Source: Xanthostigma xanthostigma
Taxonomy: Eukaryota; Arthropoda; Insecta; Raphidioptera; Raphidiidae
Assembly (NCBI GenBank): GCA_963575645.1
Contig: OY754464.1
Coordinates: forward strand, 83,798,948 to 83,862,947
DNA: 64,000 nucleotides
Direction: 5' to 3'
In this document: positions 5,041-63,848 of the stretch, piece by piece
Layout: each line of letters starts with the position of its first letter
How positions within the stretch are numbered: position 1 is the stretch's first letter
Program-made: the position numbers and the translations under genes
The notes under the pieces: model-generated
Told to the model about the DNA's origin: nothing
What the model saw: the letters and a program-made list of their open reading frames with translations, nothing else
Databases searched by the model: none

Positions 5041-5302
5041 TTTTTGACGTGATAACGTCTTATAAATTGATGAAACACCGGCTGCATGCACGAAAAAGTG
5101 TAACGTTCCGAAAAGTGTCACGTTCCGCCTGACCCTGTGCGTGCAAGCGAGAGCGCAGTATAAGCGATAGAGAGTCGGTAAAAGTATAGTTTAACAGCTA
5201 CTAAAATTTAGGTTATGTATTATTAAATATGATATTCGAGCGGAATACGTTATCACGTAAAACTATCGTCCGTAAACCGACTTTACAGACAACCAATTTT
5301 TT
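5041..5302 (+). repeat. Family E repeat, copy 1
   Basis: It starts TTTTTGACGTGATAACGTC and ends with the conserved block gtaaaccgactttacagac followed by aaccaatttttt. A palindrome lies at each end: GACGTGATAACGTC at the left and ACGTTATCACGT at the right. Six other copies occur in the window. Non-coding. The terminal layout (subterminal palindromes, no clear target duplication) does not place it in a superfamily. Confidence 0.7.
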
Positions 5303-5449
5303 ACGAGTTCTTTGGAGTTAAAATTTCTACTTTTGTCTAAATAACAAAATAGTAATTTATCTAGAATCTAGATTGTAATGTACATTATTTTATGTACGAG
5401 GTATGACATTTCATGAAAACGAATGATTACCGAGTTTTAACAATATATA

Positions 5450-5562
5450 CCTAGTTTAGTGTATTGCTGAAGATGAGAGCATAGCTCTCGAAATGTACAT
5501 CGTTTATGAACCTAGTTTAGTGTATTGCTGAAGATGAGAGCATAGCTCTCGAAATGTACATC
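5450..5562 (+). repeat. Tandem pair of 61-bp units with a hammerhead-like hairpin
   Basis: The 61-bp unit at 5450-5510 is repeated from 5511. Each unit contains CTGAAGAT, a GAGAG/CTCTC hairpin, GAAA, then TGTACATC. This resembles a hammerhead core (CUGANGA, stem II, GAAA, a 2-bp stem III with loop GUAC, cleavage after C), with one extra U before stem II. Such motifs are known from Penelope-like elements. No ORF nearby supports an autonomous copy. Confidence 0.45.
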
Positions 5563-6676
5563 CACTAATAAACTTGTTGTGGTAAGAAGTAACTATTCTC
5601 TATTTTTTATTAGATTCAAACCACAGTGCTCTTAATATTTTTGTTAATATATACCTCCTATAAAATAGCTGATTTTAACTTCATAATAAGTATTTATTTA
5701 TATAATGGACAGTATAGGTCCGGCCACATTGAAATTCTTTACGAAGACAACGCCTACTTTGCCAGCTGATTTTCACCTAATTTTGACAGTTCAATTTTGA
5801 GCTTCTGATTGCAGGCTGCGTTCAATCATCACCCCGTTAGACTATTATTATACATCGAAGCCCTCGATGTATATTGTATTCGCAATAATCCTGTATGAAT
5901 TCCTATGTCATACGTTTTCTCGAGTAACTGAAATCTGTTTTCGACGAAATTTTGGACACAGATGCGTTCCCATCATGTCAAGAGCCTTGCTAAGTTTAAT
6001 TTATGTAACTAAAAAATTAGCGCCCTTTTGGCTATAATTTGTCAAACAAACCTCCGTAACTTCTATACCATGCAAGCTACAAAAAAAAAAAAAAACTATT
6101 GCTTCGATGTATTATTGTTGCGGGCTCTATAGACCCGTTAACAATCAGTTAATTATAAAATAGACAGACAGTTTTGTAAATGTGTCAATGGTATAAAATT
6201 TAATATAAAATGCAATATATCTTTTCTAATTTCTGTACACACAGTTACTCGGAGGGTTTTCTATGAAAAGCGTTAGCTTTTCTTGTTTACTATGGAAATG
6301 GTAGCGGGACTATATTCATTATATTTTACAGCACTAGTGTTAAATGTGTCATTTCACAGACGTGAAAGCGACTATTTTATAGCTGGGGGGGTGTTAAAAA
6401 AAATAAAAAACAACCAGAGAACAGTCTGTATGTAATGAATGCGTTTTACTTATCTCCCGCGGGCAAATATATAATATACTAATTATGGTTTTGCGAGGCG
6501 CGAACACAGAAGAAAATGCCGCCCGTTTCACGAGGAGCGCTTGCGCCGACATCGCGACGCTCAAAGACGCCAACCGCATCACATCCACACCGCCACTTCC
6601 ACTAAACCTACTCTATATATAGTTTTAATTTATGCTTATACTAGACGTCCGTAACATAAAAAAAAAATGAAATTTG
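5563..6676. other. No gene seen
   Basis: Contains an 8-bp-stem hairpin at about 5849-5870 (tacatcga/tcgatgta), a poly-A tract near 6080, and a stem around 6113-6145 (cggg...cccg). These may be ends of old elements but could not be assigned. Confidence 0.4.
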
Positions 6677-15738: not shown

Positions 15739-16819
15739 TAACTTCCCGCTATTTTCGAGTTTAAAACGCTCAAAAATATATAAAATATAGCAAGAAGTTT
15801 ATTTATTAGCTCTTCGAGCTCAAAAAAAAAAACACTTTGTTACGAAATTTTCGTTCACTATATCTCATGAACAAATGAACCGATTTTGATGCGATTTGCG
15901 GCAGTCGACTCAATTTTTTATCCTAAAAAAGTAATTTATTACAGAAAAATCGATCTCATAGGAATTTTACGAGCAATTTAAAAAAACACTTTTTTACAAA
16001 TTTTTCGTTCACGATATCTCGTGAACAAATGAGCCGATTTTGATGCGGTTTGCGTCGATCGACGCAGTTTTTTTAACCTAAGAAAGTAAATTATTACAAA
16101 AAAATCGATTTGATAAGAATTTTACGAGTAATTATAGAAAATTACTTTTCTCGTAATTTTTCGTTCACGTTATCTCATGAACAAATGAACCAATTTTGAT
16201 CTGGTTTGCGGCGATCGACGCAGTTTTTTTAGCCTAAGAAAGTAATTTATTACAAAAAAATCGATCTGATAACAATTTTAAGAATCATTTTAAAAAAACA
16301 CTTTTTTACGATTTTTTCGTTCACGGTATCTCGTGAACAAATGAACCGATTTTGATGCGGTTTGCGGAAATCGACGCAGTTTGTTAAGAAGAAGAGCTGG
16401 TTAGATTTTGGAATAATTTGGTTTAGTAGTTTAGAAAATATTTTACAAAAACAAATTTTTAAAAATTTTTGAAACTTGTTTTTTTAAGATTTCTCTAAAT
16501 TTTTTGGGCCGTATCGTTTCAAATTTTCAGGAAGTCTAAGTTCACCAAGATCACGTAAGATACCGCAAACCGCGTTTCAGTCGGACACTCCGTTCAAAAG
16601 ATATAAAAGGTTTACATCATACATACACACACACACACACCCCCCCCCACACACATACATACAGCCCTACGGACATCATTGCCAAAATAGTTTCAATAGC
16701 TTCCTAGGACCTCAAAACGTCGAGATCTGGCGAAAACTCGATTTTCAAAAATCGGGGTGAAACCAATAACTTCCCGATTTTTGAAAAAAAAAAAAATTTT
16801 TTTTTAAAGCGGGAAGTTA
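15739..16819. mobile_element. Putative inverted-repeat element with tandem core
   Basis: TAACTTCCCGCT at 15739 and its exact inverse AGCGGGAAGTTA ending at 16819 bound 1081 bp. The bounded segment contains a four-unit tandem array, a (CA)n/(C)n tract at about 16619-16665 and cgacgcagttt motifs. No ORF. A chance 12-bp inverted pair cannot be excluded; similar cttcccgc-ended repeats are common in insects (recalled). Confidence 0.45.
15840..16390. repeat. Four tandem units of about 155 bp
   Basis: Each unit carries ttttcgttcac, tatctc(g/a)tgaacaaatga, ccgattttgatgcggtttgc and aaaaatcgatct. Units start near 15848, 16002, 16156 and 16312. Divergence between units is roughly 10-20 percent, so the array is not recent. 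Confidence 0.8.
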
Positions 16820-20229: not shown

Positions 20230-21256
20230 AGATCATTTTTAAGGGGAAAAAGTTCTAGAGTTGGCAACACTGGGCCGAAAAGAGTTAGAGAGAGCGGTAG
20301 GATACATGCACGTCACTGATTGGTACGTACGTACGTACGTACATCATGCAATGAACGTGCAGAGAGGAAGTAACAGATCATTTTTAAGGGGAAAAATTCT
20401 AGAGTTGGCAACACTGGCGCCGAAAAGAGTTAGAGCGAGCGGTAGGATACACATGCACGTCACTGATTGGTACGTACGTACGTACGTACGTACATCATGC
20501 AATGAACGTGCAGAGAGGAAGTAACAGATCATTTTTAAGGGGAAAAATTCTAGAGTTGGCAACACTGGGCCGAAAACAGTTAGAGCGAGCGATAGGATAC
20601 ATGCACGTCACTGATTGGTACGTACATACGTACGTACGTACATCATACAATGAACGTGCAGAGAGGAAGTAACAGATCATTTTTAAGGGGAAAAATTCTA
20701 GAGTTGGCAACACTGGGCCGAAAAGAGTTAGAGCGAGCGGTAGGATACATGCACGTCACTGATTGGTACGTACGTACGTACGTAGGTACATCATGCAATG
20801 AACGTGCAGAGAGGAAGTAACAGATCATTTTTAAGGGGAAAAATTCTAGAGTTGGCAACACTGGCGCCGAAAAGAGTTAGAGCGAGCGGTAGGATACACA
20901 TGCACGTCACTGATTGGTACGTACGTACGTACGTACATCATGCAATGAACATGCAGAAAGGAAGAAACAGATCATTTTTAAGGGAAAAAATTCTAGAGTT
21001 GGCAACACTGGGCCGAAAAGAGTTAGAGCGAGCGATAGGATACATGCACGTCACTGATTGGTACGTACGTACGTACATTATGCAATGAACGTGCAGAGAG
21101 GAAATAACAGATCATTTTTAAGGGGAAAAATTCTAGAGTTGGCAACACTGGGCCGAAAAGAGTTAGAGAGAGCGGTAGGATACACATGCACGTCACTGAT
21201 TGGTACGTACGTACGTACGTACATCATGCAATGAACGTGCAGAGAGGAAGTAACAC
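20230..21256. repeat. Satellite-like array, seven units of about 147 bp
   Basis: Units start (agatcatttttaagggg) at 20230, 20375, 20526, 20674, 20822, 20969 and 21109, giving spacings of 145, 151, 148, 148, 147 and 140. Most length change comes from a (GTAC)n stretch inside each unit. Identity between units is high, so amplification is recent. All ORFs here on either strand are repeat artefacts. Confidence 0.95.
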
Positions 21257-22863: not shown

Positions 22864-24245
22864 GGTGTAGCGGTGTCGCAGTATATAAAGAACATTATAC
22901 TATCTAGTAGTCGGTACTGTTTGGTGAACAATTTCTTTGACCTTGAAACAGCCAATAATAATCGGATGACGGATTTGGTGTACACGACTGCATATACTAC
23001 ATAGTGCCAAAAAAACCATATTAGAAATATATGTTTTCAAATGCTACCATTATTAAAAATGATTTTGCATATTTAGCATATATTTCGATACACTAATAAA
23101 TTTAATAGTTTGAAAGTTATTTACGTATATTTCCAAATAATCAATTTCTTGTTATGACAATTGAATTTTGAGTATTATACACTGTTTTGTACCATATCTA
23201 CAGAAGATTTCAAAATAGACTGTTACTTGGAAGTCACATTCATAAAAAAACCTTAAACTTACTCTAACTGCAGGTTTTAAGGTTACCAGACTAAAAAACA
23301 TCTAGGTATTTTTTAACATTCCGAACTCCAAATATGCTGTTCAAAATATTCTGCAAAGTTTTCACGGCCTGCTAAAAGTTTTTGTATTTTTTTTTTTGAA
23401 AATTGTTTTTCCCAGATTCTTTGCTACACAGAAATGATTATCAAATAATAAATTACCACATTGCAAAATCGTTTAAAAAATGCGAGTAGTTTAAAAAATC
23501 ATATTTTATTAAGCTTTTAACGAATTCAACTTTTGGCGCAATCCTACATCCGTCTGCACTATACGTATAAGTGGCCATGTTGTCTAGTGTTTTTGTGCTT
23601 TTGACTCGTGTCGCTCAGTTTGTATGCAAACTAAAAGGGTACTCTTGTTACAATGTTTATGTATAATATCTACTATATTATTTTGTGTTACTAGTCCCAT
23701 ATACTACACAATATCGAGTGTTTTGTAACGTGATTCTCGAAATGTACAGTACAATTCTCTGTGACCAAAAAGCACTATCGCTTAAGGCCGCTGCACGCGA
23801 AGCTGGTTTCTCCAAGCGTGATCTGGCGCGCTGGATTTTGTGACGCGCGTTTGGATTTAGTTCGAATGTAAACAAAAATCAATGCGATTATAGTGGAAGT
23901 TATTTCGTCGCAGACGAATAGCAATTATTGGGTTTTTTATTAATCAACTGTCTCAAATGACAACACTATATGCCATGATGTTATGTTTGTTTGTCCACAT
24001 TGCCTACGTGACAAGATGCTGTTTTCTGATTCTCAGCAGAGAATCAAGCACGAAAATTAGCTCTGGTTTCAAGGTTATTAGATACAGTGGTGGCCTCGTT
24101 TGGATGACGTCATTGCGTGATAGATCTGCCAGCTGACGTCATTCACGAACGAAGTAACCTGTGTTCTTCTAATGACTTTTTCTCGGTTGTAATTTTGAAA
24201 GCCAGCTTGTGGCCATGCATTGGAGCCCGCATTGACGGCAATTCA
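22864..24245. other. No gene seen
   Basis: AT-rich DNA with no repeat ends recognised. A slightly CpG-rich stretch at 23780-23840 and another at 24085-24160 (two tgacgtcat palindromes) carry no ORF of interest. Confidence 0.4.
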
Positions 24246-24506
24246 AAATAGTTGGCAAAACCAAAAGTGCACATCCCGCAAGTTTTCCACTGTATGATAA
24301 AAAAATAACAATTAAAAAATATTTTTAATAAATTTAAAAAGATTTAAAAATTTAAAGAAATAAATAATTAAAAATTGAAAAAATATTTTTTTTTAAGTTT
24401 GCAAAAATAAAAAAAATTAAAAACTATACATAATATAATATATAATTAATATCAAGTGGAATAAAATAAAACAAAATAAAAAGAAAAAAAAAAGAAAAAA
24501 GTCAAT

Positions 24507-24578
24507 GATACCGTAAGGAATCGAACCCAGGACCTTGCCCTTGGGAATCCAACGGCATAACCATTACGCCACGGCTGC
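24507..24578 (-). pseudogene. tRNA-like unit with Pol III boxes inside family G
   Basis: The minus strand has a perfect A box (TGGCGTAATGG) and B box (GGTTCGATTCC) at tRNA-like spacing. The acceptor and T stems pair poorly, so it is a tRNA-derived sequence rather than a functional tRNA. It sits in the middle of the repeat, not at a SINE-like 5' end. The same unit occurs in the copy at 63526. Confidence 0.65.
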
Positions 24579-25084
24579 CTAATACGTCTAGTGGTGTTAT
24601 CACGGTATACAAGTGTAGCACTTGTTTTATGGATTACACTATATTTTCATAGCGATTATTATATTGTTTTTAAACTATATTAGCTGTCAAAAATAATAAA
24701 AAATAAAACTGTTTATAAAAATTAAACTACTGAACACATTTTAGTGAATTTAAATAGGGTTCTGGTCTGATAGTAAACAAAGTGAATAAAATATAACCCA
24801 AGGCAATCCGACCAAAATTGCGATCTGTAGAGTCGTGACGTACGTACGTACATACGTACGTACGTACATACGTACAGACCAACCGACAACTGCTGTTTGT
24901 GATTTTCAATTACAATTTTAATAGTATTTATGAACTCAAATTGATTTAAAAATGGTTCTATTTTATAGATTAGAATCTCCTCTTTTCAAAAAGCTTCAAT
25001 TTGAATGGATTTCGTGTGAAATTAACTTAAATATAACTTCTTATATGAACGAAAGTCAGCTCTGACGCACAAAGCGATAATAAA

Positions 25085-25113
25085 GCACATACCGCTAGTT
25101 TAGCGGTATGTGC
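25085..25113. repeat. Perfect terminal hairpin of family G
   Basis: GCACATACCGCTA and its inverse TAGCGGTATGTGC are separated by three nucleotides. The partner copy has the same hairpin at 63006-63033 with one arm end mutated. Confidence 0.85.
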
Positions 25114-25117
25114 AATT

Positions 25118-31812: not shown

Positions 31813-31816
31813 AAGT

Positions 31817-32879
31817 TGTTACGTTATTATTTTTCTTGTGGGGGTTGGTTGGGTTTTTAAATAAACAGGTTCGAGCGTTAAAGTTTTAACACGTATAATT
31901 TAATATATAAAACTCAAATGACAAATTATAACAATACACAAAATATATAATGGAAATAAACAATAGGTTCAAATGGCTAATTTACTTTCATCGGTCAACA
32001 GAGTACTTTTAATTAAATACTCCCATCAGTGCAAATAACGATATTATTTGTACGGTCACATTCAATTTTACATAATAATAAAGTTAATGAGTCTAGCGGT
32101 CTGAAGAATCCTAAACTCGGGCGGGACTCTAATTATATTTAACTCGAATCTCTAGGTCATTCCTACGTTGTGTTTTTTTATTAGGTCATTATTTATATCC
32201 TCGGCACGGTCATTGAATTTAATACGGTCGTTGCGGTCGTGGGTCGATTTACGCTAAGGTCTGGAACAGACGAAATCCCGATCATGATCCAGAACCCTCG
32301 CGATGGTCAAGCAGTGTGCTATTAGAAGACACCGGGAAACTTATCGGAGCAGACGACAACACGATCGTACTTCAATAGTTTCCAGATCTTCGGCAAGCGA
32401 GCTGAGAATGAATCCACAAAATGCTGGAATAGACGGAACACGATCGTAAACCAGCACTTAAAGGGCTATTCAAAGCTTTCCCCGTTAGACTAGATAGGCC
32501 ATACTAGAATAGACGGAACACGATCGTAAACTAGCAAGCCACTGAGCCAACAGGGTGGTCACTGAAAGACAAATTTTTATGCGCACTGTTGCTTGACACC
32601 AATAAATGTCGAACCGCAGTAGGTACGACCGCTAATCATTTTTAATAAAAATATTAATTAAAAAGGAAATTAATGAGTAGCCATCTATTGGCGGACAACA
32701 TAATATTAATTACAAAAATATAAGTTCAATTAGACGCGGCGCTAATACGTACTTAATACCGGTCTCTGCTTAACCATAAACGCGTTTGAACACAATTTCG
32801 TGTACCTATTACTGTACACGAATATAAAGCAAACTAGATTTTACCGTGATATTAATATTATTAAATTAATATCGTTACA
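31817..32879 (-). repeat. 3' LTR (element on minus strand)
   Basis: 1063 bp, TGTTACG...CGTTACA on the plus strand. No difference from the other LTR was seen in a base-by-base reading. It contains three related hairpin repeats (32260-32293, 32422-32456, 32502-32536), a 9-bp-stem hairpin near 32802-32828 (ttcgtgtac/gtacacgaa), and on the minus strand a TATAAATA string and AATAAA near 32175-32200. Confidence 0.95.
32260..32536. promoter_or_regulatory. Three repeated hairpins with palindromic loops in the LTR
   Basis: Stems are TCTGGA/TCCAGA (32260-32293), TGCTGG/CCAGCA (32422-32456) and TACTAG/CTAGCA (32502-32536). Loops share AATAGACGGAACACGATCGT, or a related form, and include the palindromes GATCATGATC (32280) or ACGATCGT (32440, 32520). 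A further ACGATCGT is at 32361. One stem pair changes G:C to A:T in a compensatory way. The same structures occur 5479 bp away in the other LTR. They may be RNA dimerisation loops or enhancer repeats; the transcript start is unknown. Confidence 0.5.
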
Positions 32880-32891
32880 CTCCTCCGGCCC
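32880..32891 (-). promoter_or_regulatory. Polypurine tract
   Basis: The minus strand reads GGGCCGGAGGAG immediately upstream of the 3' LTR's TGTAACG, the expected place and composition for plus-strand priming. Confidence 0.75.
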
Positions 32892-33282
32892 GTGTAAAAA
32901 TACGCGATTATAAGGTCATAGTTATGTGCACCAATGGTCATAAACTTCAATGTAAAACAAAAATCGTACTTAGGGCAATTATTTGATCAATTTTCAATAT
33001 TATTCACTATCGTTCATATGACTAAATATCAAAAATACAAAACAAAATATTTCACTTCAACGTTTCAAATAAACGTAAATAATCACAGTTCAATGTCCTT
33101 AATACTACTATCAACGTTCAAACATTTATCTTATCTCTAAATATGGTCCAAATTATTAATAGTTACAAAAGGTCTGCATTAATAATTTTCAAATACGGGC
33201 AAAATAATGAAAGTTCAAAACTTCTGTATTCATCAATACAGTCAAATTTCAAAAAGGTCAATATTGTATTCTAATATCATAA

Positions 33283-33522
33283 ACACGGTCAAAAAATCAT
33301 TAAACTGAATATTGTGTAATATGATATATTTAATACGGTCAAAAATCATTAACATGAATATTGTGCTATGATATATTTAATACGGTCAAAAATCATTAAT
33401 ATGAATATTGTATTAGAATATATCCAACACGGGCAAAGTTAAAAAAAATTAATACTATGTCGTGATTTATTTAATACGGTCAAAAATCATTAATATGAAT
33501 ATTGTATTAAAATATATCAAAC
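33283..33522. repeat. Tandem ~48-bp units in the retrotransposon 3' region
   Basis: Five units carry tacggtcaaaaatcattaa and tgaatattgt. Later units are more divergent (one has acgggcaaag). They lie in the non-coding part between ORF3 and the 3' LTR. Each unit contains a cggtca motif. Confidence 0.8.
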
Positions 33523-33695
33523 ATAGTTGAAATTCAACATTTCAATAATCTACAACAAAAAAAAGGTATCGTGATATTTCAAAATGCGGTCAATGTTCTA
33601 AATGTTAATATTGCATTAGGAAATAATCACTATTTATCAAAAAAAAAAAACAAAAGTTCACATACCAAACACTTTAGCTTACTCAGCACAAAACC

Positions 33696-34238
33696 TTAGT
33701 CCACTACTTTACACACACTGGGGACAACGCGTCCCATACGGATTTGTCCGTTGGCGGCCTTCGTGAAACGAATCACGCGTCCATCGGGCAGTACGGTCTT
33801 TCTCCTACATCGTCTCTTCAAGGCTGGAGTCCAGGTGGGTAGCGGCGGCACATACGGTCGCGACGTCGGTGGCGTTGACACTGGCGTTATAGCTGGTTTT
33901 AAAGGTGCTGGAGGTTTTATTGGTGGTGGTGGTGTCGATTTGGCGGCTGGCGTTTTTATAGTCACCGGAGGCCTCAGTAAAGCCTCTGGAACCGGCGGCG
34001 GGATCACACATCGACGCCTCTTAGGGGGTGAGAGGGTCAATTGGATCAACCTCCACGGTAGCAGCTCCAGGGGTGAACGATCCTCTATTCCTCGCGTTGG
34101 CGGCGTTTCGGGGAAGCGTTCCTGCGGTGGTTTGTTGAAGGAGTTGATAGAAGGGCACGGCGATAGTGTCGGCGGCGTATTGGGTGTGCGCTGTTCATCT
34201 TCGAAGGTCGGTACGTCGTCGATATCTAGGAAGTCCAT
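33696..34238 (-). CDS. Proline-rich third ORF of the retrotransposon
   Basis: 180 codons starting ATG at 34238 (MDFLDIDDVPTF); an upstream in-frame TTG at 34244 is not a credible start. The N-terminal 15 residues are acidic. The centre (about 20-125) is dominated by Pro, Thr and Ser, with PPPP and KPP runs. The C-terminal 40 residues are basic (KRRCRRK, then DGRVIRF). No signal peptide or membrane segment is seen, so it is not an envelope protein. It follows pol after a gap of about 110 nt and would need splicing, reinitiation or its own promoter. I do not recognise the family. An acidic/proline-rich part with a basic tail could bind nucleic acid or act as an accessory structural protein (inference). 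A 165-codon ORF on the opposite strand is its antisense shadow. Confidence 0.7.
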   Translation of the reverse strand: MDFLDIDDVPTFEDEQRTPNTPPTLSPCPSINSFNKPPQERFPETPPTRGIEDRSPLELLPWRLIQLTLSPPKRRRCVIPPPVPEALLRPPVTIKTPAAKSTPPPPIKPPAPLKPAITPVSTPPTSRPYVPPLPTWTPALKRRCRRKTVLPDGRVIRFTKAANGQIRMGRVVPSVCKVVD

Positions 34239-34350
34239 TTTCAACTGAATGAGACTGCTGTTATCGCCGGTCTTTTTATAGTCGATGTTACATAAATAGT
34301 TTTGATCTTAGATTACGCAATTACGTAATTCATTTTAGTTATTCATTTGA

Positions 34351-36225
34351 TTAGTTAAACGTTTTTAAATCACTAATATGCCATATTCCAATGCTTTTAC
34401 CGTCCATTTTTGCTAGCTCATAAATTATTGGCGAAATTTTCCTCTTGATGGAAAACGGGCCCTCGTACCGGGGAGCTAATTTGGCGGCATATCCCTGCGT
34501 AGCATTGGATAGTGCGTATTTCCTTTTCAGAACTCGGTCTCCTATATTGTACTCATTTGTCCGGCGGCGCAAATTATATCGGACGGCGCTGTCTTGATGA
34601 GCCTTTTGCAAGCGATCTTTTACTTCAGTGAAAAGATGTATCAGTTCCGAGACGTGGTCGTTTGTTGTATCGGGAGCGACGTTTTGATATTCACTGGCGT
34701 GAATTTTTAGTTCGCGCCCATAATTCAGATAGGCAGGGGTGTAGTTGGTGACATCGCTTCGCGCAGTTCGCAACGCAAAGCCAAGCTCGGCTATGTTAGC
34801 GTCCCACTCGTTGTGTTTGTCGGTCACATATGCGCGTAGCATATTGTTTATAGTCAAGTTCGTGCGCTCGGTAGGATTCGCTTGCGAATGTCGACGGGCA
34901 TTTAATAACGCCTTTACCCCAAATTTTGCTAATAATTCGCGTACATTTTTCCCGGTAAATTCGGCTCCATTATCAGAGATTAGAAACTCGGGAACACCAT
35001 ATATCATAAAAACTGAGTCGTTCAAGTGTTGAGCGACTAATTTTGACGTGGCGGCCCGAAGCGGGAATAACAAGACAAATTTTGTATGCGTGTCCTGAAC
35101 AACCAGTAGGTATCTACGACCCCTTTTCGATCGAGGAAAAGGGCCCATCAGGTCAGCACTGATCGTTCTCCAGGGCACATCTGCGGTCCGGTCTTGTCCC
35201 ATTAATCCTTGGGGCGCTTTATTATCAGGTTTTGTTTGTTGACATACACTGCAGTCATGTACGTATCGTGCTACGTCAACGATCATTTTCGGCCAATAAT
35301 AACTTCGTTTTATTCGGTCGTATGTTTTGGCGACACCTAAGTGTCCGGCGGTCGGTTCATCGTGAAACTGTTTGAGTATTTCGGGTCGTAATTTATTGGG
35401 CACCACTAATTTCCATTCATACGCAGGATTTGGAAAGTGGTGTCGGTCAGTGATTTTTTTATAAATCTTGTTGTCGTGAATTTTCCATCGTGGATAATCA
35501 TCAGGGTTGGCTTCAATATTTTCGGTCATTTTATTATACCAGCGGTCATGTAATTGTTCCGGAAAAGTGATAACATCAATCGGTACAGTATCGTTCAGAG
35601 GTTCACACAATGCATCATTTCTAGCGTTGTCTTTTCTTTTTCTGTACCTTTTGTTCCTCAACTTTTCTTTGGGCGTGATGGTCGTTATGGTCGTTACATG
35701 GTCAGTGTTCGGAGAAAATGTCCAAGTTCCTCTACTCATATCGGGCACTATCTGCATAGCGATCCAAAAATCAATGCCGAGAATTAAATCTTGCGGTAAT
35801 TCGGGCACTAATAGGACAGTAATACGGCGTGTTCGGTCAGATACGGTCATTAACACACTCATTTCTTCTTCAACAGAGTACGTGGTTCCATCAGCGGTCT
35901 GAATTTTGTGATTTAATGAAGGTCGAGGGCGGTATCCCCGTTCAGCGAGTAGCAATCTTCCTCTCGGTCCGGTCATCGTTCGGCTAGCTCCTGAATCTAA
36001 TAATCCGGGTAACTCTCTTCCTCCAATGGTCACAAATAAATACGGTCGGGCATCTCCTGGCATTTTTGAAATCACGTTCTGTTCAGCGGTCGGTGCAGAT
36101 TGTTTTAAGGTCGGTCTAGAGGAATACAGGCGACGTTTACGACCTGTTAACGTGCCTGTAGGGCGTTTCCCTGTGTCTGTCGACAGCGAGGACAATTTGT
36201 CGTCGTAGTTCCGTTCATTCCACAC
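34351..36225 (-). CDS. pol: Pol (protease-integrase), RT and RNase H absent
   Basis: 624 codons, entered by -1 frameshift from gag; the frame has no ATG at its 5' end. The aspartic protease (about 62-170) has DSGA at 77-80 and an ILG(I)DF motif at 148-153. A basic linker (185-205) leads straight to integrase. The zinc finger is H288, H295, C325, C328. The catalytic triad is D358 (SADLMGP), D418 (ISDNGAEF) and E453 (PTERTN). The C-terminal module has GPF at 589-591 and WHISDLK near 615. A usual gypsy Pol has about 500 residues of RT/RNase H between protease and integrase; here about 60 residues of linker replace them and no YxDD box exists anywhere in the element. Integrase and protease look intact. 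Mobility would need RT supplied by another element (inference). Confidence 0.9.
   Translation of the reverse strand: MWNERNYDDKLSSLSTDTGKRPTGTLTGRKRRLYSSRPTLKQSAPTAEQNVISKMPGDARPYLFVTIGGRELPGLLDSGASRTMTGPRGRLLLAERGYRPRPSLNHKIQTADGTTYSVEEEMSVLMTVSDRTRRITVLLVPELPQDLILGIDFWIAMQIVPDMSRGTWTFSPNTDHVTTITTITPKEKLRNKRYRKRKDNARNDALCEPLNDTVPIDVITFPEQLHDRWYNKMTENIEANPDDYPRWKIHDNKIYKKITDRHHFPNPAYEWKLVVPNKLRPEILKQFHDEPTAGHLGVAKTYDRIKRSYYWPKMIVDVARYVHDCSVCQQTKPDNKAPQGLMGQDRTADVPWRTISADLMGPFPRSKRGRRYLLVVQDTHTKFVLLFPLRAATSKLVAQHLNDSVFMIYGVPEFLISDNGAEFTGKNVRELLAKFGVKALLNARRHSQANPTERTNLTINNMLRAYVTDKHNEWDANIAELGFALRTARSDVTNYTPAYLNYGRELKIHASEYQNVAPDTTNDHVSELIHLFTEVKDRLQKAHQDSAVRYNLRRRTNEYNIGDRVLKRKYALSNATQGYAAKLAPRYEGPFSIKRKISPIIYELAKMDGKSIGIWHISDLKTFN
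36108..36171 (-). promoter_or_regulatory. -1 ribosomal frameshift signal: slippery site plus pseudoknot
   Basis: In the gag frame the minus strand reads G GGA AAC (36171-36165), a canonical X XXY YYZ heptamer. After a 4-nt spacer, stem 1 pairs TACAGGC+ACG (36160-36151) with CGT, a one-base bulge and GCCTGTA (36135-36125). The loop sequence AGGTCG (36145-36140) pairs with CGACCT (36113-36108), giving an H-type pseudoknot. The gag stop (36149-36147) lies in the loop. Pol is in the -1 frame relative to gag, as required. Confidence 0.8.
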
Positions 36226-37211
36226 GTATTGCAGAATTGGTGATTCGGCGGGTTAGGGCAGTCTCTGTATGCATGTCCTTGTGTGCGACAGTTCCAACAC
36301 TTGTAGCGGAATGCCGGTTTATTGTTCGCAGTGTTTATTTCATAAACAGGACTAGTTCGTGACTTTTGGATCACCCGTATATTATCATTTTGTGTTCCGG
36401 TCATGTTGGATACTTTTGATAAATCGGGCTCCAACAGTTGGTTCGGGGGGCACGATTGACGGCGTGCTCTCAGTCGTCCTCGTTCAAGTCGAGAAACTAA
36501 GTTTTCAAGTTCGTCAATGGTTCGGGGTTCGTTCAAGCTTATTTGTTCCTGATAATCGGGCAGACAATTAAGTTCAATTGTCTGCATTTGTTCACTATAT
36601 GCAGGCGGACGCTCCATACGTTTGTATAGACTAAACATTTTTGCGACATAAACAGAAAATGGTTCAGTAGGTCCCTGTTTTCGTTTATTAATTTCTATTT
36701 TTAATAAATGGTCATAGTCTGGATCTCTAAAAGATTTGCGTAACGTTTGCACTAGCTCATCCCATGTACGTAACTTATCTCGAGCATAGCGGTAGACTTG
36801 TAAGGCTGAGCCTCCAAACAGTCCGGAAGCTGAGTGCAACAAGTCGGTTGTTGTTATACTGTTGTCACGGCGTCGGTCTTCTACATCCTCCAAAAACGTT
36901 TCTAAACTATTTCGATCGTCCCCGGTAAACTTTATTCCCCATTTGTACACGGGAATAGCTTTATAGGAACGGACAGCGGGCGTTAGGTCTAAGTTCAATG
37001 CACGCAAGCGTGCTGAAAAATCATTAGGTCGGTCAGCAATGTCAATATTTTGTTCAACATTTGGGTCGGGTCGGATTGGCTCAGGCGGTGTTGACGTTGC
37101 CTGTGTGGGTCCATCAATCTGCTCTTCTTCTTGAAGGGTGGATTGTCTAGGAAGGTCAGGTCGGATAACAAGTTGATCTAGTTCGTCTCGTGAAAGTCTG
37201 TCAACGTCCAT
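36147..37211 (-). CDS. gag: Gag (capsid-nucleocapsid)
   Basis: 354 codons from an ATG at 37211, 62 nt downstream of the primer site. Residues 1-85 are acidic and Pro-rich. About 90-265 form a retrotransposon Gag capsid-like region (KFTGDDRNSLETFLEDVE ... LRKSFRDPDYDHLLKIEI ... FSVYVAKMFSLYKRM), matching the family pattern of Ty3/gypsy Gag. The tail has one canonical zinc knuckle CX2CX4HX4C (CWNCRTQGHAYRDC, 305-318) and a second Cys cluster at 327-340 lacking the usual His. It would assemble the particle and bind genomic RNA. The last 25 codons overlap pol and contain the frameshift site. No disabling mutation is seen. Confidence 0.9.
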   Translation of the reverse strand: MDVDRLSRDELDQLVIRPDLPRQSTLQEEEQIDGPTQATSTPPEPIRPDPNVEQNIDIADRPNDFSARLRALNLDLTPAVRSYKAIPVYKWGIKFTGDDRNSLETFLEDVEDRRRDNSITTTDLLHSASGLFGGSALQVYRYARDKLRTWDELVQTLRKSFRDPDYDHLLKIEINKRKQGPTEPFSVYVAKMFSLYKRMERPPAYSEQMQTIELNCLPDYQEQISLNEPRTIDELENLVSRLERGRLRARRQSCPPNQLLEPDLSKVSNMTGTQNDNIRVIQKSRTSPVYEINTANNKPAFRYKCWNCRTQGHAYRDCPNPPNHQFCNTCGMNGTTTTNCPRCRQTQGNALQAR

Positions 37212-37273
37212 TTTGAACCCGTGTACGGTCGGTATTGTTACAACAATAGGTCAATCGGATCTTTGTTTTATAA

Positions 37274-37293
37274 GAATCCTGGTCACGGCACCA
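37274..37293 (-). promoter_or_regulatory. Primer binding site for tRNA-His
   Basis: The plus strand here equals the CCA-tailed 3' end of animal tRNA-His (gaatcctggtcacggcacca, 20 nt; tRNA sequence recalled). It lies 2 nt inside the 5' LTR (37296). So the minus-strand RNA would pair with 20 nt of tRNA-His. Confidence 0.75.
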
Positions 37294-37295
37294 GT

Positions 37296-38358
37296 TGTTA
37301 CGTTATTATTTTTCTTGTGGGGGTTGGTTGGGTTTTTAAATAAACAGGTTCGAGCGTTAAAGTTTTAACACGTATAATTTAATATATAAAACTCAAATGA
37401 CAAATTATAACAATACACAAAATATATAATGGAAATAAACAATAGGTTCAAATGGCTAATTTACTTTCATCGGTCAACAGAGTACTTTTAATTAAATACT
37501 CCCATCAGTGCAAATAACGATATTATTTGTACGGTCACATTCAATTTTACATAATAATAAAGTTAATGAGTCTAGCGGTCTGAAGAATCCTAAACTCGGG
37601 CGGGACTCTAATTATATTTAACTCGAATCTCTAGGTCATTCCTACGTTGTGTTTTTTTATTAGGTCATTATTTATATCCTCGGCACGGTCATTGAATTTA
37701 ATACGGTCGTTGCGGTCGTGGGTCGATTTACGCTAAGGTCTGGAACAGACGAAATCCCGATCATGATCCAGAACCCTCGCGATGGTCAAGCAGTGTGCTA
37801 TTAGAAGACACCGGGAAACTTATCGGAGCAGACGACAACACGATCGTACTTCAATAGTTTCCAGATCTTCGGCAAGCGAGCTGAGAATGAATCCACAAAA
37901 TGCTGGAATAGACGGAACACGATCGTAAACCAGCACTTAAAGGGCTATTCAAAGCTTTCCCCGTTAGACTAGATAGGCCATACTAGAATAGACGGAACAC
38001 GATCGTAAACTAGCAAGCCACTGAGCCAACAGGGTGGTCACTGAAAGACAAATTTTTATGCGCACTGTTGCTTGACACCAATAAATGTCGAACCGCAGTA
38101 GGTACGACCGCTAATCATTTTTAATAAAAATATTAATTAAAAAGGAAATTAATGAGTAGCCATCTATTGGCGGACAACATAATATTAATTACAAAAATAT
38201 AAGTTCAATTAGACGCGGCGCTAATACGTACTTAATACCGGTCTCTGCTTAACCATAAACGCGTTTGAACACAATTTCGTGTACCTATTACTGTACACGA
38301 ATATAAAGCAAACTAGATTTTACCGTGATATTAATATTATTAAATTAATATCGTTACA
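37296..38358 (-). repeat. 5' LTR (element on minus strand)
   Basis: 1063 bp, identical to the 3' LTR as far as I could read. Offset between the copies is 5479 bp. It should contain the promoter; no strong initiator could be pinned. Hairpin repeats recur at 37739-38015. Confidence 0.95.
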
Positions 38359-38433
38359 AAGTTATACTTCTTTTAACGCGTTACAAAAAAATTAACAGAA
38401 TGACCTTGACGACAGAAGCGCGCAATACAATAT

Positions 38434-51494: not shown

Positions 51495-52265
51495 TCAGAT
51501 GGCTTTCAGTGAAATATAATTGTTCAAAGTATTCTTAGTAACCATAATTTCTTTAACATTTTTCCAGTCAATTCCAGTATCTCCTAAATCGTCTTTCCTA
51601 ATCGCTAATATTCGTAAATCACGTGCAAGAGTTTTAAAATGAAGGAAATTTTGAGAATTAAGGCAATTGACAATACACGAATTCTTCTTGAGTGCTAAAC
51701 GGATAATTGAAACCAACTGTGAAGGCACGAAAATGTCCCCTGATTTTTCTATTGCAGTACTGATTGTACTATGCACAGAATCACCTTCATTCTGTCCATG
51801 ATGAGCTTCAAAAAACGACAAGGTAATAGATTTAATATTTTTCGATGTGGAAATAATATGCAGCAACATGGCGGCAACGATTGAATTTTTATTTTGCCCG
51901 CTGCACCCATCGGAAAATAAATGTACAGTGTGAACTCCATCTAGGTCAAGTTTTTTAAGATACATACTAAGGCAAGTTGAGATTTCACAAGAACCCCGTT
52001 TGCTGAGTCCTTCATGCCAAAAATAGCATTGACATTGCTTTGATTGTAGGTTGTAAATCATAAAATTGTAATGAGCGAGTCGACGACTGTAGAAAATCTG
52101 GCTAAGTTCTTTCTCACAACCGTCAACGATATATTTCTCTGGAGTTGGTGTTATTACTATTAAATTGTGATTATTTTCGCAAGGTCCCATTTGACCAAAA
52201 TGCTCCCAGCATAGCAAGCATAAACAACGAACACATCTTCTCTCTGACAATTTCCAGTTTGACAA
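51495..52265 (-). CDS. DUF7869-like protein, C-terminal part
   Basis: 256 codons; the listed 5' end is a TTG and not a real start, so this is the continuation of the reading frame upstream. It opens with a Cys cluster (CVRCLCLLCWEH). At about 55-175 it has the DUF7869-type pattern: a YNLQ...Q(C)YFWHEG segment, CEISTCL, VHLFSDGCSGQNKN (Asp in SDG) and FFEAHHGQNEGDSVHSTI. In this family such residues are thought to form an RNase H-like, transposase-derived fold (family knowledge, recalled). The C-terminal 60 residues are not recognised. The upstream ORF overlaps by about 105 nt in another frame, implying a one-base frameshift near 52265, an error or an unseen intron. Confidence 0.65.
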   Translation of the reverse strand: MSNWKLSERRCVRCLCLLCWEHFGQMGPCENNHNLIVITPTPEKYIVDGCEKELSQIFYSRRLAHYNFMIYNLQSKQCQCYFWHEGLSKRGSCEISTCLSMYLKKLDLDGVHTVHLFSDGCSGQNKNSIVAAMLLHIISTSKNIKSITLSFFEAHHGQNEGDSVHSTISTAIEKSGDIFVPSQLVSIIRLALKKNSCIVNCLNSQNFLHFKTLARDLRILAIRKDDLGDTGIDWKNVKEIMVTKNTLNNYISLKAI

Positions 52266-52660
52266 CGATCACCATAGGTAGGATCCTTGTCTACATCATC
52301 AAACTCGGACAAATAAATATCATCGTCTTCTGCAGTATTCTCCATTTCTTGGTGTCTATTTTTATCATCATGAGGATAATTAGTTTTTGTATCGGAAACT
52401 ATTCTCTTTTCAATAAGAATCGCCTGTTTCAAAATCTCGAGAGGTGTATCATCATCATCATCCTCACTGTCGAAATTTGTATTAACTGTTTCATCTTCAA
52501 CTTGCAGAACAGTTCCAAAATACCATTTTTTGTCTGGTTTCCAGTACATTTTAATTTGCACCCCTACGTCATTTTTTTCTGATTTTATAACGGCTTCTAT
52601 GTCTGATTGGGAATTAACTACATTCATCGTCCCATCATCCCAAAGAACGAGGACGTCCAT
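52160..52660 (-). CDS. N-terminal part of the same transposon gene, Tudor-like segment
   Basis: The first ATG in frame is at 52660 (MMDVLVLWDDGTMNVV). Residues 1-55 have a VLWDDGT...WYFGTVLQV pattern resembling Tudor/BEN-associated N-terminal modules of insect transposon proteins (inference). Then comes an acidic stretch DSEDDDDD and a charged linker to YLSEFDDVDKDPTYGD. After this the frame continues about 25 residues to a stop, while the neighbouring frame carries the Cys cluster and DUF7869 domain. The real junction is therefore probably near 52265-52280. Together the two parts would make a protein of about 390 residues. Confidence 0.55.
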   Translation of the reverse strand: MDVLVLWDDGTMNVVNSQSDIEAVIKSEKNDVGVQIKMYWKPDKKWYFGTVLQVEDETVNTNFDSEDDDDDTPLEILKQAILIEKRIVSDTKTNYPHDDKNRHQEMENTAEDDDIYLSEFDDVDKDPTYGDRCQTGNCQREDVFVVYACYAGSILVKWDLAKIITI

Positions 52661-52684
52661 CATTACGGCAAACACACTATTCGA

Positions 52685-62411: not shown

Positions 62412-63004
62412 TATTAACATCATTTGTTAGTCTGTTAGAGTCTAACTAACAAGTGTGTTTTCGATCTGTCGGGACTTACATGAGTTCTACATATACTGTA
62501 TTTTCTTTCTCTATAGTCTATACAGTCAATATTAATAGACTGTTTAATCGTCCGGATCGTCAAATTTTGATACACATCAAATTTATTATCATTTACATGC
62601 ATATTTATGCATCGCGACAGTATAATTCATCCAATTACCCAACTTATAACATGTGTATCATTGTCCGACATAACTAAGTCCACACATTTATTACATTTTA
62701 TATATGCATATCATATTATGATAGTACATTGTATATTATTATATTATTTGATACGCGCTGTGATGGCCATCATATTTATTAATATTCGTTGGATTAGAGC
62801 CGACAGAAGAACATTTTTAATATATTCATTTCATCTTTATAATAATAATTCACTTTGATATTATTTCAGATACATTCATTATGGCCGGTTTTAAGTACTT
62901 TCAATGCTTATCGAAGCACTTTCATACACTAACATATTTTGATTTACGTAGAATAGGGTATTTGAAAATAAACGGTTAGGATTTTATTTTAGTCCCACAA
63001 TTAT
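62412..63004. other. No gene seen
   Basis: AT-rich with two overlapping short plus-strand ORFs (62453-62858) lacking any domain. Confidence 0.4.
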
Positions 63005-63848
63005 TGCACATACCGCTAAACTAGCGGTATGTCCTTTATTATCGCTTTGTGCATCAGAACTGACTTTCGTTCATATAAGAAGTTATATCTAAGTTAATTT
63101 CACACGAAATCCATTCAAATTGAAGCTTTTTGAAAAGAGGAGATTCTAATCTATAAAACAGAACCATTTTTAAATCAATTCGAGTTCATAAATACTATTA
63201 AAATTGTAATTGAAAATCACAAACAGCAGTTGTCGGTTGATCTGTACGTATGTACGTACGTATGTACGTCACGACTCTACAGATCGCAATTTTGGTCGGA
63301 TTGCCTTCGGTTATATTTTATTCACTTTGTTTACTATCAGACCAGAACCCTATTTAAATTCACTAAAATGTGTTCAGTAGTTTAATTTTTATAAACAGTT
63401 TTATTTTATTATTTTTGACAGCTAATAGTTTAAAAAAACAATATAATAATTGCTGTGTAAATATAGTGTAATCCATAAAACAAGTGCTACACTTCTATAC
63501 CGTGATAACACCACTTCACTTAGTAGGCTTCGTGGCGTAATGGTTATGCCGTTGGATCCCCAAGGGCAAGGTCCTGGGTTCGATTCCTTACGAAATAATT
63601 GATGTTTTTCTTTTTTTTTTCTTTTTATTTTGTTTTATTTTATTCCACTTGATATTAATTATATATTATATTATGTATAGTTAAAACTACTATACTTAAA
63701 AAAAATATTTTTTCAATTTTTAATTATTTATTTCTTTAAATTTTTAAATCTTTTTAAATTTATTAAAAATATTTTTTAATTGTTATTTTTTTATCATACA
63801 GTGGAAAACTTGCGGGATGTGCACTTTTGGTTTTGCCAACTATTTTCT
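63005..63848 (+). repeat. Family G repeat, copy 2
   Basis: Inverted partner of 24246-25117, with the gcacataccgcta hairpin at 63006-63033, (GTAC)n at 63244-63270, the block ctacagatcgcaattttggt and the AT-rich tail ending ttttggttttgccaactatt. Identity looks above 90 percent outside simple repeats. Confidence 0.8.
63526..63597 (+). pseudogene. tRNA-like unit with Pol III boxes in family G copy 2
   Basis: A box tggcgtaatgg and B box ggttcgattcc are both intact, as in the copy at 24507. The 5' acceptor half has changed (aggcttcg instead of gcagccg), showing no constraint to keep a tRNA fold. Confidence 0.65.

What the first reader, a model, noticed from the sequence alone, without database searches (positions are those of the whole stretch)
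34351..36225. A freshly inserted gypsy-type element with intact gag, protease and integrase but no reverse transcriptase
The sequence shows protease (DSGA) fused in frame through a ~60-residue linker to a complete integrase (HHCC, D358/D418/E453, GPF). No RT or RNase H motif occurs anywhere between the LTRs. The LTRs appear identical, so this copy was reverse-transcribed very recently, presumably using RT in trans. Either a replication-defective lineage is parasitising a relative while keeping its own particle and integration proteins, or the deletion arose during the last cycle. If many copies share the same junction, it is a distinct semi-autonomous class of LTR element.
Basis: partly seen in the sequence, partly recalled or inferred. 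Interest (0 to 1): 0.75.

Follow-up and report, generated by a model that had tools for sequence, protein, structure and literature searches.

The report
Mobile gypsy family lacking reverse transcriptase
A young family of gypsy-type jumping elements has lost its reverse transcriptase but keeps a conserved integrase and has spread anyway, so it probably borrows the missing enzyme from another element that has not yet been found.

Summary
The observation largely holds. On the minus strand at 31817-38358 lies a Ty3/Gypsy LTR element: identical 1,063-nt LTRs, 4-bp target duplication, gag, a -1 slip heptamer, protease joined in frame to integrase, a third ORF, and no reverse transcriptase.

It is not a one-off. 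The genome server answered one search: 40 LTR matches scored of 189 candidates. I fetched 16 further LTR-to-LTR copies. All 16 run from protease to integrase without RT; all 17 have a perfect 4-bp duplication and 13 have identical LTR pairs. A public contig has the junction too.

The loss is not from the last cycle. The linker holds a decaying RNase H tail, and integrase and ORF3 show purifying selection among the RT-less copies. The copies are mosaics, as expected if their RNAs are co-packaged.

Two corrections: gag is not intact here (about 113 residues missing; 13 of 17 copies truncated), and an RNase H remnant exists.

Best reading: a semi-autonomous lineage that supplies integrase, ORF3 and some Gag and borrows RT/RNase H in trans. 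Protease constraint is not shown. The donor was not found: later genome searches did not complete, and 149 LTR candidates stay unscored.

The parts
37296..38358 (-). 5' LTR, 1,063 nt, TGTAACG...CGTAACA on the element strand
   Evidence: exact repeat with 31817-32879; 40 scored near-identical LTR matches in the genome
31817..32879 (-). 3' LTR, 1,063 nt, identical to the 5' LTR
38359..38362 (.). target-site duplication AAGT, right copy
31813..31816 (.). target-site duplication AAGT, left copy
37272..37295 (-). primer binding site region; likeness to tRNA-His is recalled, not tested; five sequence versions among 17 copies
36147..37211 (-). gag, 354 aa, Retrotrans_gag (just above cut-off); zinc-knuckle-like cysteines by eye (Pfam zf-CCHC_6 below cut-off); 113 aa shorter than the 467-aa form
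36165..36171 (-). GGGAAAC heptamer, read in the gag frame as CAG GGA AAC, fitting -1 frameshifting into pol
   Evidence: 17 of 17 copies
34351..36225 (-). pro-int ORF (listed from a GTG); probably translated as Gag-PR-IN from the slip site
35716..36060 (-). aspartic protease region, borders approximate (DSGA begins at 35997)
   Evidence: Asp_protease_2 E 1.5e-6; position
35587..35715 (-). linker at the RT-RNase H deletion junction with an eroded RNase H tail; residues ALSR absent here, kept in 6 of 16 aligned copies
34354..35586 (-). integrase: H2C2 zinc domain, DDE core D358/D418/E453, GPF/SH3 module
   Evidence: up to 52% identical to integrases of RT-bearing relatives
33696..34238 (-). ORF3, 180 aa from ATG, proline-rich, acidic N-terminus, basic C-terminus; 53% identical to P0121; purifying selection
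33260..33517 (-). 47-bp AT-rich minisatellite between ORF3 and the 3' LTR
32880..32891 (-). polypurine tract (GGGCCGGAGGAG) adjoining the 3' LTR, inside a 40-nt stretch identical in 17 of 17 copies

Best explanation
This is a recently active, semi-autonomous Ty3/Gypsy family. An ancestor with RT and RNase H lost both by an in-frame deletion that joined protease to integrase through the last part of the RNase H tail (arrangement shared by all 17 copies: shown; single origin: inferred). The family encodes Gag, a PR-IN frame reached by -1 frameshift (inferred from the heptamer), and a third protein ORF3, and has made many new insertions since. Its RNAs are packaged together, reverse transcribed by RT/RNase H supplied in trans by another LTR element, and integrated (inferred). 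Purifying selection suggests that integrase encoded by this family, in cis or from sister copies, still does the integrating (inferred). Many copies have gone a step further and lost the Gag N-terminus, so they may also borrow full-length Gag (inferred).
For: 40 scored full-length LTR matches, listed as 100%. 16 of 16 fetched copies run from PR into IN without RT; all 17 have a perfect 4-bp TSD; LTR pairs identical in 13 of 17, 1-2 mismatches in 4. LTR start-to-start spacing 5,191-5,825 in all 17 pairs, while relatives such as P0003 are 447 aa longer than P0001. Same junction in public protein P0001 (4 substitutions in 570 aa), probably on the same 4,713-nt contig as gag P0122. IN changes N18:S23 over 16 copies, omega 0.24-0.34, P 6e-6 to 5e-4 for kappa 1-5.5; ORF3 N40:S38, omega 0.40-0.50, P 6e-5 to 1.6e-3. 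RNase H remnant in the linker. Four-gamete violations in pol rise from 0.19-0.22 below 300 nt to 0.62-0.79 above; the gag, pol and 3' trees disagree. IN keeps 51 of 53 columns conserved in relatives.
Against: No RT-bearing partner was identified, so the trans step is inferred. PR shows no significant constraint (N11:S6, P 0.26-0.47) and has changed 2 of 13 conserved columns, as many as only 3 of 114 relatives; gag core is weak at best (N34:S21, P 0.01-0.16); the Gag N-terminus in the four full copies has N7:S2. L041 and L042 have a broken or deleted IN frame yet LTR pairs with 0 and 1 mismatch, so intact IN in cis is not needed for every insertion. Only 40 of 189 LTR candidates were scored. 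Gene conversion could mimic constraint.
Confidence: 0.8

Rival explanations
1. The family has a full-length parent with the same LTR and gag in this genome; the RT-less copies are deletion derivatives that outnumber it, an ordinary autonomous/non-autonomous pair (a sub-case of the best explanation).
For: Usual situation for non-autonomous LTR elements (passages of PMC9744471). 149 of 189 LTR candidates were not scored. Mosaic copies show that related RNAs exchange sequence.
Against: 0 of 17 LTR pairs hold RT. The gag search of the 5.8-billion-protein set found only the sister P0122; among the 120 listed pol hits (of 444) no RT-bearing one exceeds 52% identity. The remnant tail is eroded and differs among copies.
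Confidence: 0.4
2. RT comes from a distantly related LTR family that shares only primer site, packaging and LTR-end features, as proposed for the wheat Wilma/Sabrina/WHAM system (a sub-case of the best explanation).
For: No same-LTR RT copy seen; RT not restored in any of 17 copies although they are mosaics; PBS versions vary as if re-copied from primers (inference).
Against: No candidate donor was found; genome searches with P0003 and P0122 did not complete.
Confidence: 0.45
3. The deletion arose during the last replication cycle of one copy (dead on arrival).
For: Identical LTRs in the window copy.
Against: 16 of 16 fetched further copies at other sites share the arrangement, and so does P0001 from another source.
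Confidence: 0.01
4. Assembly error removed RT from the window copy.
For: None found.
Against: Same arrangement in 17 assembled copies at different sites with different linker variants, plus P0001.
Confidence: 0.01
5. The coding regions are passengers: the RNA is mobilised entirely by a helper, and the apparent constraint on IN reflects gene conversion from RT-bearing helpers.
For: L041 and L042 inserted recently with damaged IN frames; copies are mosaics; PR and gag constraint is weak or absent.
Against: IN and ORF3 N:S ratios are well below neutral; pol is open over 606-610 codons in 15 of 17 copies and ORF3 near full length in 15 of 17; no RT-bearing conversion donor seen.
Confidence: 0.15

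Closest known systems
RLG_Sabrina_SA / RLG_WHAM with RLG_Wilma in wheat (PMC9744471; passages seen)
   Same: Semi-autonomous Gypsy families that keep Gag (Sabrina_SA: Gag-protease), lack RT, are abundant and are thought to rely on an autonomous partner with little sequence homology
   Different: Those lack RT and integrase; this family keeps a constrained integrase plus ORF3; here the partner is unknown
RLG_Quinta with RLG_Cereba in Einkorn wheat (PMC11302176; passages seen)
   Same: Non-autonomous Gypsy partner that encodes Gag and another domain, lacks RT
   Different: Quinta also lacks integrase; it shares LTR ends and PBS with an identified partner
BARE2 / BARE1 in barley (PMC3735527; passages seen)
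   Same: A parasitic variant keeps part of its genes and takes a missing function from a partner; it predominates over the partner in the genome
   Different: BARE2 (Copia) cannot make Gag but keeps pol; this family lacks RT
Athena of Arachis (PMC5904367; passages seen)
   Same: LTR family called non-autonomous because it lacks the RT coding sequence
   Different: The passages say nothing about integrase
RT-bearing Ty3/Gypsy relatives P0002, P0003, P0048, P0059
   Same: Same PR and IN architecture; the window keeps 51 of 53 conserved IN columns and 11 of 13 conserved PR columns
   Different: They carry RT and RNase H between PR and IN; hosts unknown

Membership tests
Ty3/Gypsy LTR retrotransposon | LTRs with TG...CA ends, short TSD | tested here: met
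   17 of 17 with 4-bp TSD
Ty3/Gypsy LTR retrotransposon | PBS after 5' LTR and PPT before 3' LTR | tested here: met
   sequences at the expected places in 17 of 17; primer tRNA identity recalled, not tested
Ty3/Gypsy LTR retrotransposon | gag and aspartic protease | tested here: met
   (Retrotrans_gag 24.2 bits against cut-off 24.1; Asp_protease_2 29.2 against 24.3)
Ty3/Gypsy LTR retrotransposon | DDE integrase with H2C2 and GPF/SH3 module, related to Ty3 | tested here: met
   (best solved-structure match Ty3-G polyprotein 7q5b, E 6.6e-34)
Ty3/Gypsy LTR retrotransposon, autonomous | RT and RNase H between PR and IN | tested here: not met
   only an RNase H tail remnant
Semi-autonomous LTR family (Sabrina_SA type) | many recent copies sharing the same coding deletion | tested here: met
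   16 of 16 fetched copies
Semi-autonomous LTR family (Sabrina_SA type) | retained proteins under selection | tested here: inconclusive
   IN and ORF3 yes; gag core weak; PR not significant
Semi-autonomous LTR family (Sabrina_SA type) | RT-bearing partner matching in PBS and LTR ends | tested here: inconclusive
   0 of 17 LTR pairs carry RT; further genome searches unanswered
Gmr1-type Gypsy (IN before RT; recalled) | RT downstream of IN | tested here: not met
   no RT match downstream; ORF3 has no Pfam match
LARD/TRIM (recalled) | no coding capacity | tested here: not met
   three long ORFs

The most novel reading that the evidence does not exclude
A division-of-labour retroelement: an RT-less lineage that supplies particles, integrase and a new accessory protein (ORF3) and captures RT from a separate family, helped by a dispersed sense-strand RNA code (GACC motifs, 69 sense against 3 antisense) that acts as a packaging or recognition signal. 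In effect a multipartite retrotransposon whose RT is carried by another element.
Probability: 0.2. Interest if true: 0.85.

Novelty: new variant of a known kind. Interest (0 to 1): 0.62.

Why it matters
Non-autonomous LTR elements are common, but those described in the passages I saw lose RT together with integrase, or lose Gag. A family that drops only RT/RNase H, keeps integrase under selection and still spreads separates the steps of the LTR cycle in nature: it asks whether RT can be supplied from outside while integrase must come from the family's own RNAs. With a chromosome-scale genome the donor question is directly testable.

Tried and rejected
Plain local alignment of the linker to relatives gave no score better than shuffles; the later profile test showed the RNase H tail, strongly only in L031 and L034 of four tested. 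Dead-on-arrival and assembly error were rejected by the shared junction. RT downstream of IN was rejected. A structure after the frameshift heptamer is not supported (z -0.73). GACC columns are not less variable than others among 16 copies (8 of 204 against 198 of 4,048, P 0.62). ORF3 gave a poor model (mean pLDDT 59.7); no fold search was run on it. Scans of viral contigs and genome contigs found no relative. Rfam and ARAGORN found nothing in the window. Ten literature searches of open-licence PMC papers; I saw passages of five papers (PMC5904367, PMC3286476, PMC3735527, PMC11302176, PMC9744471) and only listings of the rest. None of those passages describes an RT-less family that keeps integrase.

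Full report
Check of the observation. The finding is the 624-aa ORF at 36225-34351 on the minus strand. Pfam gives an aspartic protease and integrase domains (H2C2, rve, SH3_Tf2-1) and no reverse transcriptase; the same library finds RVT_1 and RNase H in the relative P0002, a positive control. tblastn of 122 related proteins against the window gives no match starting outside the pro-int ORF other than gag and ORF3. The catalytic residues are D358, D418 and E453. The two LTRs are 1,063 nt and identical, with AAGT on both sides. The element is thus 31817-38358, read from right to left.

Other copies. The first protein search gave P0001, a 570-aa PR-IN with 4 substitutions and the same junction, probably on the same 4,713-nt contig as P0122 since both list that contig length. 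Of the 120 listed hits (of 444), the only others without RVT_1 are P0071 and P0088, which by sequence begin in the RT-RNase H part and look like fragments. The host genome (623 Mb, 28 contigs) answered one search: 189 LTR candidates, 40 scored, all full-length and listed as 100%. Seventeen LTR pairs (window and 16 fetched) were examined: all run from PR to IN without RT, all have a perfect 4-bp TSD, LTR pairs differ by 0 (13 of 17), 1 (3 of 17) or 2 (1 of 17) bases. L042's linker was seen only by tblastn, as its pol was too short for the alignment. Of the six LTRs without a listed partner, four had loci and all four adjoin internal sequence, so they are ends of further elements; two were not examined. 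Pol is open over 606-610 codons from the slip site in 15 of 17; L041 is frameshifted and L042 has a deletion in integrase. ORF3 is shortened in L040 and L043.

Selection after RT loss. Because all copies share the deletion, their differences most simply arose after it. Distinct changes over 16 copies (L042 dropped): IN 18 nonsynonymous and 23 synonymous, omega 0.24-0.34, P 6e-6 to 5e-4 for kappa 1 to 5.5. ORF3 (16 copies, L040 dropped): 40 and 38, omega 0.40-0.50, P 6e-5 to 1.6e-3. Gag core (17 copies): 34 and 21, P 0.01-0.16. PR: 11 and 6, P 0.26-0.47. Linker: 14 and 8, P 0.10-0.33. The Gag N-terminal part: 7 and 2, no sign of constraint. Kappa 5.5 corresponds to the LTR spectrum (22 transitions, 8 transversions); the AT-rich region gives 21 and 24. 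IN keeps 51 of 53 columns conserved in relatives; PR keeps 11 of 13, and only 3 of 114 relatives deviate as much. So integrase and ORF3 are constrained, gag weakly at best, protease not demonstrably. Conversion from RT-bearing elements could mimic constraint and is not excluded.

Mosaic copies. FastTree trees of gag core, pol and the 3' part disagree. Four-gamete violations within pol are 20 of 89 below 100 nt, 32 of 170 at 100-300, and 71 of 115, 22 of 28 and 58 of 94 beyond (gapped columns and singletons dropped). This is what template switching between co-packaged RNAs gives; repeated mutation and gene conversion are alternatives. The PBS has five versions in 17 copies (8, 5, 2, 1, 1) beside an identical last 40 nt with the PPT, which fits re-copying from tRNA primers; that reading, and the tRNA-His likeness, are recalled knowledge and inference.

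ORF3. It has no Pfam match and one homologue in the protein set, P0121 (53% overall, 60% in the best stretch over 42% of the query), with an acidic N-terminus, a shared central block and a basic C-terminus. The model is poor but suggests three C-terminal strands. Function is unknown; a nucleic-acid-binding role is a guess.

A strand-biased motif. GACC occurs 69 times on the sense strand and 3 on the other in 5' LTR plus internal region (5,479 nt); 300 dinucleotide shuffles give 27.4 on average, at most 43. The strand asymmetry (7.8) exceeds the top 4-mer of each of 25 overlapping control stretches of the window (2.3-5.1). In pol the count of 26 exceeds all 1,000 synonymous shuffles (mean 12.9, maximum 22); in gag (12, mean 10.2) and ORF3 (4, mean 2.4) it does not. 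All 17 internals have 50-58 GACC and 1-3 GGTC. The motif is predicted less paired than average (0.49 against 0.33), which partly follows from the rarity of its complement; ACCG shows the same. Against function: its columns are no less variable than others. It may be a packaging or recognition code, or a compositional relic.

How it most likely works. Shown: an RT-less family with constrained integrase and ORF3 that has inserted many times recently and whose copies are mosaics. Inferred: RNAs are packaged in Gag particles, RT/RNase H comes in trans, integration uses the family's IN. Unknown: the donor. With 0 of 17 copies carrying RT and no restoration of RT despite mosaicism, I lean slightly to a donor of another family, but 149 unscored candidates leave a same-LTR parent open.

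Comparison. It is a Ty3/Gypsy element by LTR, TSD, gag, PR and IN, but fails the autonomous definition. The closest described kind is the semi-autonomous wheat Gypsy families (PMC9744471, PMC11302176; passages), which lack RT and integrase; BARE2 (PMC3735527; passages) cannot make Gag. In ten searches of open-licence PMC papers I saw no RT-less family that keeps integrase; most subscription papers and repeat databases were not searched, so this is not proof of absence.

Changes made on re-checking: the constraint test was extended to kappa 5.5, PR's two lost conserved columns and the limits were added.

Noticed in passing
window 32880-38358, minus strand; all 17 internals: GACC is strongly over-represented on the element's sense strand (69 against 3), most clearly in LTR, pol and the AT-rich 3' stretch: a possible RNA recognition code.
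   Followed up: partly
window 37272-37295 and L031-L046: The primer binding site exists in five versions among 17 very similar copies, with small insertions inside it, while the last 40 nt with the PPT are identical.
   Followed up: partly
window 36147-37211; L034-L041, L043-L046: Twelve of 17 copies have a 328-aa gag and the window a 354-aa one, against 467 aa in four: a second layer of loss in a family that still spreads.
   Followed up: partly
window 33696-34238: ORF3 has one homologue found in the protein set (P0121, 1,302-nt contig) and is under purifying selection; nature unknown.
   Followed up: partly
window 51495-52675, minus strand: Two overlapping ORFs; the one at 51495-52265 matches DUF7869 (E 1.6e-7).
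   Followed up: no
window 20230-21255, 15826-16382, 2364-2727: Tandem arrays with units of about 148, 156 and 63 bp.
   Followed up: no
window 24245-25116 and 63003-63846: Two inverted copies of a dispersed repeat, five blocks 85-100% complementary, about 38 kb apart.
   Followed up: no
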